A stretch of 53,012 nucleotides of DNA from a bacterium (GTDB lineage Bacteria > Armatimonadota > Zipacnadia > Zipacnadales > UBA11051): positions 1-53,012 of the forward strand of contig JAJFUB010000028.1 of assembly GCA_021372615.1 (NCBI GenBank), given 5' to 3'. Of this stretch, positions 23,862 through 36,286 are shown piece after piece (within the stretch, counting starts at the first letter, position 1; every line of letters begins with the position of its first letter). The notes beneath the pieces were generated by a model. The model did no database searches. It was not told the DNA's origin and saw only the letters and a list, made by a program, of their open reading frames with translations. Both the position numbers and the translations under genes were made by a program.

Positions 23862-24175
23862 GGCGGGGCCTCCGAAGGGATTGGCGTAGAGTTCCGGCAT
23901 CATGAGGGGTTGACCTGCCGGTGGGACGGCAACGGCTCCTCACCCCTGCCCCTCTCCCTCGCCCGCGGAACGACCGCGGGCTCCGGAGAGGGGAGGCCGA
24001 ATGTCGCTCTGTAACTTCGAAGCCACGAAGTGGTCGCACGTGGTCCCCTCTCCGGAGCGCGGCCTCATCGCGCGAGGGAGAGGGGTAGGGGTGAGGACGC
24101 CGTTCCCGGCAGGTCGCGCCGACCCTCGAACCGAAATGTCCTCCCTCACCAACGACTTCCCCGGGAGGGCATCCC
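23862..24175. other. Intergenic region holding a nested palindrome
   Basis: This divergent region between the nucleoside hydrolase and the SDR gene is dominated by the 159-bp nested palindrome (23938-24096). Only about 80 bases on each side are left for promoters, and none was clear. Short open frames inside it look like chance products of the repeat arms. Confidence 0.5.
23938..24096. repeat. 159-bp nested palindromic element
   Basis: Outer arms of 25 bases (23938-23962 and 24072-24096) pair with one mismatch; they are C/T-rich on the left and G/A-rich on the right. Inner 14-base arms (23981-23994 and 24044-24057) pair perfectly. Two smaller hairpins lie inside: CCCGCGG/CCGCGGG (23962-23968, 23974-23980) and ACTTCG/CGAAGT (24014-24019, 24026-24031). 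The branched fold looks like a MITE or REP-type element rather than a terminator. No target-site duplication was recognised. Confidence 0.7.
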
Positions 24176-31482: not shown

Positions 31483-32628
31483 ATGGACCGACTGGACATC
31501 AAAGACGACCGCGCCGGGAAGGTGGTGAGCATCCCCGGAGGGCTGTGGGCCTTTGTGCCCCACAAGCTCCCGCCGTGGATCGAGTCCGGCCCGCGCTTCC
31601 TGCAGGCCACTGCGGAGGCCGGCAGCGCGCTCAGCCGCGTGGACGGGGCGATGAGCATGTTTCCGCCTGGCGCCACGCCGATCTCCCCGCTGCTGTGGCG
31701 CGAGGCCAGCGCCAGCGCGCGCATCGAGGGCGCCGGCGTCACCTGCGCCGAAGCTGTGCAGACCGAACTGGAGTGCGCGCCCGCGGGCAGCGAACTCGAC
31801 GAGGCCGCCGCCTGCCGCGATGCCATGCAACTGGGCCTCGAGCGCATGCCGAAGCTGGGGTTCGGCGTCGAGCTGGTGACGCTCATGCACGCCGAGGCCA
31901 TGCGCGGGGCGCACTGGGCGTACGTGTCGCCCGGCCGCTTCCGCGAGGTGCAGACGTTCATCGGCGTGCGTCGCAAGCGCCTGAGCACCGCCTCGTACGT
32001 CCCGCCCCCGTGGGAGTACATCGGCGAGCTGATGGCCGACTGGGAACGCTTCGCCCGTGAGAACCGCGAGCTGCCCCCGCTGGTGCAGACAGCCATCCTG
32101 CACGCGCAGTTCGAGCTGATCCACCCCTTCATGGACGGCAACGGCAAGGTCGGCCGCATGGCGATGAACCTGTTCCTGCTGTCCTGTGGCCGGCTGAGCT
32201 ACCCGGTCCTGCTGCTGAGCCACTACTTCGAGCGCACCCGACACGAGTACTACCAGGCCCTGCGCGGCGTAAGCCACCGAGGGCTGTGGGAGGAGTGGGT
32301 GATGTACTTCCTGGACGGCGTCACGCAGGAGTCCGAGCGGATCCTGCGCGTGGCCCAGCGCCTGAACGCCCTGCGCGAGGACGCGCGCGAGCACCTCATC
32401 GCGCGCCGCGCCGGCCCGTCGGCCCTGCGCCTGCTGGACACCTTGCTCGACAACCCGTACACCAGCCGCGAGTTAGCCGCCACCAAGCTGGAGGTCTCCG
32501 CGCGTACGGCACGGACCGCCATCGCCGCCCTGCAGGGCCTGGGCCTGGTCGAGGAGACCACCGGCCAGCGCCGCGACCAGCGCTTCCGCGCCCCCGCGAT
32601 CATTGACGCCCTGCACACCGACGTCTAG
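31483..32628 (+). CDS. Fic family protein with atypical motif (GNGK)
   Basis: A 381-residue Fic-fold protein; the fold usually transfers AMP or other phosphate-linked groups to protein hydroxyls. The Fic motif is HPFMDGNGKVGR (His214-Arg225): the first Arg of the usual GNGRxxR is Lys. A self-inhibitory helix, S78-x3-E82-G83 (SARIEG), lies in the N-terminal domain, so the class is the N-terminally inhibited one. A C-terminal winged-helix-like segment (TSRELAATKLEVSARTARTA) may bind DNA. It resembles the Fic protein at 33783-34970, with a lysozyme between them. The target is unknown. The Lys substitution could alter ATP phosphate contacts. Confidence 0.88.
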   Translation: MDRLDIKDDRAGKVVSIPGGLWAFVPHKLPPWIESGPRFLQATAEAGSALSRVDGAMSMFPPGATPISPLLWREASASARIEGAGVTCAEAVQTELECAPAGSELDEAAACRDAMQLGLERMPKLGFGVELVTLMHAEAMRGAHWAYVSPGRFREVQTFIGVRRKRLSTASYVPPPWEYIGELMADWERFARENRELPPLVQTAILHAQFELIHPFMDGNGKVGRMAMNLFLLSCGRLSYPVLLLSHYFERTRHEYYQALRGVSHRGLWEEWVMYFLDGVTQESERILRVAQRLNALREDAREHLIARRAGPSALRLLDTLLDNPYTSRELAATKLEVSARTARTAIAALQGLGLVEETTGQRRDQRFRAPAIIDALHTDV

Positions 32629-33736: not shown

Positions 33737-33790
33737 ATGGATCTAGCCGTGGTAGTGAACTCAGAGGGCAAGGACCTTTCCCATGCGTGA
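33737..33790 (+). CDS. Possible 17-residue leader peptide before Fic
   Basis: ATG 33737 opens a short frame (MDLAVVVNSEGKDLSHA) that ends with TGA at 33788-33790, overlapping the start of the Fic gene (33783). It would begin almost at the predicted transcription start, so it would be leaderless. There is no ribosome-binding site. It could be translated to couple Fic expression, or be chance. Confidence 0.2.
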   Translation: MDLAVVVNSEGKDLSHA

Positions 33791-34970
33791 GGAAGGCGGG
33801 CCTGCCGGCGAGTATGTCTCCATCGGCGGACGCGAGCCAGCGTTTGTGCCCTATGCGCTGCCGCCGCGCCTGGTTTGGTCGCCCGGCCTGCTGAATGACC
33901 TGGCCGAAGCGGCGCGGTCGCTGGGAGTGCTGGAAGGCTTCAGCCACGTGTCGGACTTCTCGCAGTACATGCCCGGCCCTCGACTGCTGCTGTCACCCCT
34001 GCTGCAGCTGGAGGCACTATCCAGTTCGCGGATCGAGGGCACGGTCACGACCCTTGAGGAGATCCTGCGAGCACTCAGCGGCGACAGGACCGACGTGGCG
34101 TCCGGAACCGTCGAGGTCCTCAACTACCTCGACGCGCTGGAACTGGGAATGGCGGCACTCCGCCGTCGGCCGCTCAACCTCGACCTCGTCCGTGAACTGC
34201 ACCGGGAACTGCTGAAGAGCGCGCGCGGCCACGACCGCACGCCGGGCGAGTACCGACAGCGGCAGGTCTACATCGGGAACCCGCGGGTCGGGCGACTGAG
34301 CTACGTCCCGCCCCCGCCTGAACGCCTGCCCGGACTCCTGGCGGACTGGGAGCGGTTCCTCCTGCAGGATGACAACCTGCCGCCGCTGCTGAAGTGCGCT
34401 CTGCTGCATGTGCAGTTCGAGATGATCCACCCCTTCAGCGACGGGAACGGCCGTACCGGGAGGCTCATCATGAGCCTGTACCTGGTGCAGCGAGGCTATC
34501 TGAGCCAGCCGTTGCTCTATCTGAGTGGCTACCTGGAGCGCAACCGGGCGGAGTACTACACGCGGCTGCAGGCAGTAAGTCGTCGCGCCGACTGGCAGGG
34601 ATGGACTAGCTTCCTGCTCCGAGGCATCGCGGCGCAGGCTCAGCACACCGTGGAGGTGTGCCGCAACCTCATCGCCCTCCGCGACTCGCTGCGGGCGGCC
34701 CTGACACAAGCCCGCGTCTCAGCCACGGCGATGAGACTGCTGGATCTGCTGTTCGAGAACCCCTACACGAGTGTCCCGGTGGCCGCCCAGCGTCTGGACG
34801 TCACATACCCCACCGCGCAGTTGGCGTTGCGCAGTCTCGAGCGGATGGGCCTCGTGATCGAGTACACCGGGCGACGACGGCGCAATCGCCGCTTCCGCGC
34901 CGACGGCATCATCGCGGCGATTCGGGCGGAAGAGGAGCAGGTGCCCGGGGCCCGGGCTGACACGGAGTAA
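33783..34970 (+). CDS. Fic family protein with canonical motif
   Basis: A 395-residue Fic protein, a probable AMP-transferring or related enzyme. The active-site motif HPFSDGNGRTGR (His216-Arg227) is complete. The inhibitory motif SSSRIEG (Ser81, Glu85) lies in the N-terminal helix, so activity is expected to be autoinhibited until Glu85 moves. Residues ~300-395 form a winged-helix-like domain (TSVPVAAQRLDVTYPTAQLA) with a basic tail (YTGRRRRNRRFRADG) that may bind DNA. AAGGA is 8 bases before the ATG. It has its own promoter (33701-33730). hydF begins 5 bases after its stop, so the two are co-transcribed. A role as a toxin or transcription-linked regulator is possible. Confidence 0.93.
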   Translation: MREEGGPAGEYVSIGGREPAFVPYALPPRLVWSPGLLNDLAEAARSLGVLEGFSHVSDFSQYMPGPRLLLSPLLQLEALSSSRIEGTVTTLEEILRALSGDRTDVASGTVEVLNYLDALELGMAALRRRPLNLDLVRELHRELLKSARGHDRTPGEYRQRQVYIGNPRVGRLSYVPPPPERLPGLLADWERFLLQDDNLPPLLKCALLHVQFEMIHPFSDGNGRTGRLIMSLYLVQRGYLSQPLLYLSGYLERNRAEYYTRLQAVSRRADWQGWTSFLLRGIAAQAQHTVEVCRNLIALRDSLRAALTQARVSATAMRLLDLLFENPYTSVPVAAQRLDVTYPTAQLALRSLERMGLVIEYTGRRRRNRRFRADGIIAAIRAEEEQVPGARADTE

Positions 34971-34975
34971 TGGCC

Positions 34976-36286
34976 ATGCTATCCACCCCCAAAGGCTTCC
35001 GCCTTCACATCGGCCTCTTTGGCCGGCGTAATGTCGGCAAGTCGTCCATCCTCAATGCCCTCACCCGGCAGGATGTCTCCATCGTCTCCGACGTGGCCGG
35101 CACGACCACCGACCCCGTCGAGAAGCCCATGGAGCTGCTGCCGCTCGGGCCCGTGCTGTTCATTGACACCGCCGGCATTGACGATGTCGGCGCGCTCGGC
35201 GAGATGCGCGTGGCGCGGACGAAGCAGATCTTCGACCGGTGCGACCTCGGCGTCATCATCGTCGGCATGGAGCGCGGCTCTCCAGAGCCGCCTTCGCCGG
35301 CCTGCGGCTCTGGAGAGCCGCGGTCCAGTGACTTCGGCCCCTTCGAGGAGGAGATCCTCAAGGAGCTGCAGCAACGCCAGATCCCCGTCATCATCGTGCT
35401 CAACAAGGCGGACCTCGGCGCGCCCGACCAGGCCCTGCTGGACCGCTTCAAGGCCGCCAAGATCCCGGTGGTGCAGACCGTCGCGGTGCAGGGCCAGGGC
35501 CTCCCCGAGCTGCGCGAGGCGCTCATCAAACACGCGCCCGAGGACTTCATCAACATGCCCTCGATCATGGGCGACCTGCTGCCGGCCGGGGAGTTGGCGG
35601 TGCTGGTCGTGCCCATTGATCTGGAGGCCCCCAAAGGCCGGCTGATTCTGCCGCAGGTCAACGCCATCCGCGACGTGCTGGATGTGGACGCCTACTGCAT
35701 GGTCGTCAAGGAGCGCGAGCTGCGCGACGCGCTGGAGCGCCTCAACCGCCCGCCGGCCATCGTTGTCACCGACAGCCAGGGCTTCCTGAAGGTCGCCGGC
35801 GACACCCCGCCCGAGATCCCCATGACCTCGTTCTCGATCCTCTTCGCCCGCTACCGGGGCGATCTGTTCGAGTTCGTGCGGGGCGCGCTGACCATAGACC
35901 GCCTCAAGCCCGGCGACCGCATTCTGATCGCCGAGGCCTGCTCGCACCACCCCATTGGCGAGGACATCGGCACCGTCAAGATCCCGCGCTGGCTGACCCA
36001 GTACGTCGGCGGCAAGCTGGAGTTCGACAATGTGCAGGGGCACGACTTCCCCGATGACGTGACACCCTATCGGCTCATCGTCCACTGTGGGTCATGCATG
36101 TGGAACCGGCGCGAGATGCTGTCGCGCATTCTACGCTGCCGCCAGCAGGGCGTACCGATCACCAACTACGGGGTCACGATCGCGTATAGCCTGGGGATCT
36201 TCGAGCGCGCGCTGGGGCCGTTCCCGTCGGCGCTGGAGGAGTACCGCCGCTTCCGGCGGGAGCAGGTGGGGAAGCGGAAGGCGTAG
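34976..36286 (+). CDS. hydF: [FeFe]-hydrogenase maturation GTPase HydF
   Basis: HydF is the GTPase scaffold that assembles the 2Fe subcluster before it is passed to the hydrogenase, working with HydE and HydG. The 436-residue product has the G1 loop GRRNVGKS (residues 16-23), the G2/G3 region (DVAGTTTDPVEK, FIDTAGIDD), NKAD, and the [4Fe-4S] ligands Cys322-x-His324, His370-Cys371-x2-Cys374 (HCGSC). Residues ~100-116 are an in-frame insert encoded by a 48-bp palindrome, not expected in the family. Start ATG 34976 has CGGAG 8 bases upstream; an ATG at 34970 overlaps the Fic stop. No hydrogenase, hydE or hydG is in the window. Confidence 0.94.
   Translation: MLSTPKGFRLHIGLFGRRNVGKSSILNALTRQDVSIVSDVAGTTTDPVEKPMELLPLGPVLFIDTAGIDDVGALGEMRVARTKQIFDRCDLGVIIVGMERGSPEPPSPACGSGEPRSSDFGPFEEEILKELQQRQIPVIIVLNKADLGAPDQALLDRFKAAKIPVVQTVAVQGQGLPELREALIKHAPEDFINMPSIMGDLLPAGELAVLVVPIDLEAPKGRLILPQVNAIRDVLDVDAYCMVVKERELRDALERLNRPPAIVVTDSQGFLKVAGDTPPEIPMTSFSILFARYRGDLFEFVRGALTIDRLKPGDRILIAEACSHHPIGEDIGTVKIPRWLTQYVGGKLEFDNVQGHDFPDDVTPYRLIVHCGSCMWNRREMLSRILRCRQQGVPITNYGVTIAYSLGIFERALGPFPSALEEYRRFRREQVGKRKA
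35274..35321. repeat. 48-bp palindromic element inside hydF
   Basis: Two 18-base units (35274-35291, 35304-35321) are exact reverse complements separated by 12 bases. Each unit is itself nearly palindromic (GCGGCTCT-CC-AGAGCCGC). The 48 bases are 16 codons, so hydF stays in frame. The 15-mer AGCGCGGCTCTCCAG at 35271-35285 recurs at 45966-45980. Confidence 0.75.

What the first reader, a model, noticed from the sequence alone, without database searches (positions are those of the whole stretch)
35274..35321. In-frame palindromic element inserted in hydF
Two 18-base inverted units separated by 12 bases add exactly 16 codons to HydF between GTPase strands. Repeat insertion inside an essential-looking GTPase domain without breaking frame is unusual. 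It suggests a mobile palindromic element tolerated as a surface loop.
Basis: partly seen in the sequence, partly recalled or inferred. Interest (0 to 1): 0.62.

Follow-up and report, generated by a model that had tools for sequence, protein, structure and literature searches.

The report
Mobile REP hairpin inside hydF gene
A short, multi-copy DNA hairpin of the bacterial REP/REPIN type has landed inside the gene for the hydrogenase-assembly protein HydF without breaking its reading frame; REP elements inside genes are already known, so this is a clear new example in an unstudied phylum (Armatimonadota), not a new kind of element.

Summary
The two 18-base inverted units are real. Each is a GGAGC head plus an 18-nt hairpin, facing tail to tail, in an element of about 58 nt (35269-35326). 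The same genome (6.4 Mb Armatimonadota draft) holds 116 copies at up to 2 mismatches, against 1 for the reversed control. The insert adds 19 codons to HydF, not 16. It is absent from all of about 100 HydF relatives compared and from a solved HydF structure. AlphaFold places it in a low-confidence loop between a GTPase strand and helix. About 70 copy sites were inspected: most lie between genes, often just after stop codons. About eight lie in genes by codon-usage frame (FGGY kinase, FolC, others); all keep the frame. All 23 close pairs are tail-to-tail with unconserved spacers (11-22 nt, one 71), the REPIN layout. A RAYT transposase in this genome, and orthologs in three relatives, are flanked by inverted hairpins with the same head but different stems. 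Best explanation: a REPIN, spread by a RAYT-type HUH transposase, tolerated as a surface loop. Mobility is inferred; the exact cognate RAYT was not found. Intragenic REPs are published, so this is a new member of a known kind.

The parts
34970..36286 (+). hydF, 438 aa, [FeFe]-hydrogenase maturation GTPase, intact ORF
   Evidence: TIGR03918 543 bits (cut-off 326), Pfam HydF_dimer/HydF_tetramer/MMR_HSR1
35269..35326 (.). REP doublet (REPIN-like) inserted in frame; net +19 codons against relatives
   Evidence: tail-to-tail pair of GGAGC-tagged hairpins; absent in about 100 HydF relatives
35269..35273 (+). head GGAGC of left REP unit
   Evidence: GGAGC conserved in 87-91 of 92 units at each position
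35274..35291 (+). left 18-nt hairpin unit GCGGCTCTCCAGAGCCGC
   Evidence: exact family consensus
35292..35303 (.). 12-nt spacer, not conserved between copies
   Evidence: spacers of other pairs differ in sequence, 11-22 nt with one at 71
35304..35321 (-). right 18-nt hairpin unit, inverted
   Evidence: exact consensus on - strand
35322..35326 (-). head of right unit, GGACC on - strand (one change from GGAGC)
   Evidence: unit L012 minus

Best explanation
The stretch is a REP doublet (REPIN-type element): two GGAGC-headed hairpins, tail to tail, about 58 nt, belonging to a family with about 90-116 copies in this genome. Such units are probably moved or copied as single-stranded hairpins by a Y1/HUH RAYT transposase. 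Most surviving copies sit between genes because insertions that break genes are removed by selection. This copy survives because its net length is a multiple of three, it contains no stop in this frame, and it lies in a GTPase-domain loop after the strand at residues 93-99, where extra residues probably do little harm. Shown: family, layout, absence in relatives, frame preservation, loop position in a model, and RAYTs flanked by same-head REPs. Inferred: transposition by RAYT, selection against other insertions, functional neutrality of the insert.
For: 116 copies against a control of 1; head GGAGC at about 95% or more per position in 92 units and an A after the hairpin in 78 of 92; all 23 close pairs are tail to tail, spacers 11-22 nt apart from one of 71; insert absent from about 100 HydF relatives and from PDB HydF 5lad; about eight genic copies in frame on both sides by codon usage, and no frame-shifting copy in the sites checked; RAYT at G000:C34 passes NCBIfam NF047646 REP_Tyr_transpos and is flanked on both sides by GTAGGAGC-GCCAGCTTCCAGCTGGC; orthologs in G041, G009 and G033 are likewise flanked by GGAGC hairpins; GGAGC-hairpin counts go with the presence of this RAYT (Fisher p about 0.001); insert residues 104-119 have pLDDT below 50 between strand 93-99 and helix 124-135.
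Against: The RAYT-flanking REPs have different stems from the hydF unit, so the strict cognate transposase is not identified; it may be lost or unassembled. G046, G051 and G031 have GGAGC hairpins without a strong RAYT hit. No closely related strain was available to see a filled/empty site or an excision. Singles (46) outnumber doublets (23), and doublets are not more conserved than singles (61% against 67% exact), unlike the Pseudomonas REPIN result. Net insertion lengths are not an exact unit multiple (57-60 nt in hydF; about 15-18 nt in FGGY).
Confidence: 0.88

Rival explanations
1. The palindrome is a functional part of hydF (for example an RNA hairpin regulating the gene, or a selected protein loop) that happens to look like the repeat.
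For: Very stable hairpin; HydF otherwise intact and apparently in use (HydG and six Fe-hydrogenase large-subunit hits in the genome).
Against: No HydF relative has it; the same DNA unit occurs in other genes in other reading frames, giving different peptides (GARLSRAA, GSPEP, AALQSR, GSGEPR).
Confidence: 0.05
2. Two independent single REP insertions, or one insertion followed by inverted duplication, rather than one doublet moving as a unit.
For: Spacers of the pairs are not conserved in sequence; single units are more common than doublets.
Against: All 23 pairs share one orientation and 22 of 23 have an 11-22-nt spacing, which independent insertion would not give; the hydF spacer is itself extra relative to relatives.
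Confidence: 0.2
3. Assembly or binning artefact at a repeat.
For: Draft assembly in 171 contigs; several copies lie at contig ends.
Against: The window continues hydF in frame through the element and both flanks match the same relative HydF at about 86% identity.
Confidence: 0.02

Closest known systems
REPINs of Pseudomonas fluorescens SBW25 (PMC3116915)
   Same: Two inverted REPs with a variable spacer forming a hairpin, many copies, linked to RAYT-type transposases
   Different: Shorter here (about 58-68 nt); singles more common; doublets not more conserved than singles; phylum Armatimonadota; located in a gene
GTAG-tagged REPs including intragenic REPs in Opitutus terrae, Thioalkalivibrio and others (PMC3733652)
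   Same: Head-tagged hairpins, mostly intergenic and close after genes, a minority inside ORFs, dimers adding 20-30 aa; RAYT-flanking copies here read GTAG-GAGC
   Different: The invariant part here is GGAGC; the GT of GTAG is present in only about 60% of dispersed units and absent from the hydF copy
Xanthomonas REPs (GTAGGAGCGCGCTCGCGCGCGA) with RAYT (PMC2817692)
   Same: Same GTAGGAGC head followed by a G+C hairpin; RAYT flanked by two inverted REPs
   Different: Stem sequence; host phylum
Rickettsia palindromic elements (RPE; described in PMC10969869)
   Same: Palindromes inserted in frame in protein genes
   Different: RPEs are longer (about 150 bp) and carry a conserved peptide; no RAYT link was tested here for RPEs

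Membership tests
REP (repetitive extragenic palindrome) | 20-40-nt palindrome in high copy number, mostly intergenic | tested here: met
   116 places; about 8 of about 64 resolvable sites genic, the rest between genes
REP (repetitive extragenic palindrome) | conserved tag at one end of the palindrome | tested here: met
   GGAGC head in nearly all of 92 units
GTAG-tagged REP superfamily | GTAG tetranucleotide at the tagged end | tested here: inconclusive
   RAYT-flanking copies have GTAGGAGC; dispersed units have G and T at those positions in 56 of 92 each; the hydF copy has CATGGAGC
REPIN | two inverted REPs with a spacer, forming a hairpin | tested here: met
   23 of 23 pairs tail to tail; strong fold of the hydF copy
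REPIN | doublet is the replicative unit (doublets more conserved than singles) | tested here: not met
   61% of doublet units exact against 67% of singles; small sample. This is evidence used for REPINs in Pseudomonas rather than part of their anatomy, so I call the hydF element REPIN-like
RAYT/REP system | RAYT gene flanked by two inverted cognate REPs | tested here: inconclusive
   A same-head RAYT/REP pair exists, but its stem GCCAGCTTCCAGCTGGC differs from the hydF-family stem
RAYT/REP system | transposase acts on the REP | not testable with these tools
   needs biochemistry
Rickettsia RPE | about 150-bp element encoding a conserved peptide | tested here: not met
   about 58-nt element; different peptides in different genes

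The most novel reading that the evidence does not exclude
The 24-nt single unit (GGAGC + 18-nt hairpin + A) is exactly 8 codons and stop-free in all six frames, and several unrelated palindrome families sit in frame in proteins of this genome; the repeats may have been shaped to be harmless within genes, making them a recurrent source of new protein loops.
Probability: 0.12. Interest if true: 0.55.

Novelty: new member of a known kind. Interest (0 to 1): 0.33.

Why it matters
It extends the REP/REPIN-RAYT system and its in-gene insertions to Armatimonadota (no paper in the searched library holds both terms). It also offers a clean natural insertion in a GTPase domain whose activity can be assayed: a test of how much a maturation GTPase tolerates in that loop.

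Tried and rejected
Conserved HydF domain extension: rejected, absent in about 100 relatives. Frame-shifting genic copies: seven candidates from the codon scan all proved to lie after an upstream stop codon, between co-directional genes. The hydF-stem REP directly flanking a RAYT: none found within 1 kb of seven Y1_Tnp genes. Exact insertion boundaries and target duplication: could not be fixed, as relatives are too diverged; FolC shows replacement of a variable linker rather than simple gain.

Full report
Observation. The window holds GCGGCTCTCCAGAGCCGC at 35274-35291 and its reverse complement at 35304-35321 inside hydF. Each unit is also self-complementary, so the pair can form either two small hairpins or one long one (-33.9 kcal/mol, z -8.7). 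The protein is HydF (TIGR03918, 543 bits), and the genome also encodes HydG and six matches to the [FeFe]-hydrogenase large subunit, so the gene is probably in use.

Is it an insertion? Of about 100 HydF relatives at 45-83% tblastn identity over the aligned part, including a same-family genome (G001), none has the stretch. A solved HydF, 5lad, also lacks it. The net gain is 19 codons against nearly all relatives. With the heads the element is 58 nt, so one or two bases at the junction are unresolved.

Is it a repeat family? The unit occurs 116 times at up to 2 mismatches in the 6.4-Mb genome, against 1 for the reversed control. In 92 aligned units the five bases before the hairpin are GGAGC in nearly all, the base after is A in 78, and GCCGT is common on both flanks. 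Among the sampled own-genome sequence, hairpins follow GGAGC far more often than other 5-mers tested (87 against 8-18); that sample is centred on copies, so this number is biased upward. All 23 close pairs are tail to tail; 22 have spacers of 11-22 nt and one has 71, and the spacer sequences of the exact pairs differ.

Where are the copies? A codon-usage scan of about 70 sites found most between genes, many starting 2-44 nt after an upstream stop codon. About eight sites lie in genes in the same frame on both sides: hydF, an FGGY kinase, FolC (Mur ligase), an HZS-alpha-domain protein, an FG-GAP protein, a spermidine-synthase-like protein, an unassigned protein (L042) and possibly the end of another (L174). 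No copy was seen to break a gene's frame, but this rests on a home-made codon score, not a full annotation. If coding density is about 85% (an assumption), genes are strongly avoided. The unit gives different peptides in different genes, which argues against a selected peptide.

Who moves it? Seven Y1_Tnp proteins are in the genome. One, at G000:C34, passes NF047646 REP_Tyr_transpos narrowly (81.2 against a cut-off of 80) and is flanked by inverted GTAGGAGC-GCCAGCTTCCAGCTGGC hairpins. Its orthologs in G041, G009 and G033 are flanked by GGAGC hairpins with other stems. Genomes with this RAYT tend to have GGAGC hairpins (4 of 6 against 3 of 55, p about 0.001), though the cut-offs were chosen after seeing the data and G046, G051 and G031 have hairpins without a strong RAYT hit. 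G009 and G014 carry the variant GCGGCTCACCAGAGCCGC. No RAYT with the exact hydF stem was found, so the link is by head, hairpin size and genome, not by identical sequence.

Structure. In the AlphaFold2 model (mean pLDDT 76.8) residues 104-119 are below 50 and lie between strand 93-99 and helix 124-135. Low confidence there is expected for an insert absent from the alignment, so this supports but does not prove a flexible surface loop.

Comparison. RAYTs flanked by inverted REPs (PMC2817692), REPINs (PMC3116915) and intragenic REPs, more than half of them dimers or groups encoding 20-30 residues (PMC3733652), are all published. The hydF case fits these in layout and effect. Differences are the GGAGC tag with a partly kept GT, the shorter doublet, and doublets not being more conserved than singles. 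It is a new member of a known kind.

Noticed in passing
L010 (G000:C22), FGGY kinase, minus strand, near residues 203-233: A second in-frame insert of 31 aa made of CCCCCCCCTGAAGGGGGGGG-type palindromes, absent in 14 relatives.
   Followed up: partly
L205 (G000:C101), spermidine-synthase-like gene: The REP unit is followed closely by another palindrome CCCCTCCCTGAAGGGAGGGG, the whole still in frame.
   Followed up: partly
window 23949-24085: Intergenic pair of palindromes CCCCTCTCC...GGAGAGGGG; a similar one is in L032.
   Followed up: partly
L211 (G000:C56): A Y1 transposase gene flanked by GTAG-CCGTGGGC-GGCA-GCCCACGG hairpins, a separate REP family in the same genome.
   Followed up: no
window 31483-32628 and 33783-34970: Two Fic-family genes flank a glycosyl hydrolase 25 gene just upstream of hydF.
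   Followed up: no
L035 (G000:C48), FolC: The REP unit stands where relatives have a longer variable linker, suggesting insertion with deletion.
   Followed up: partly
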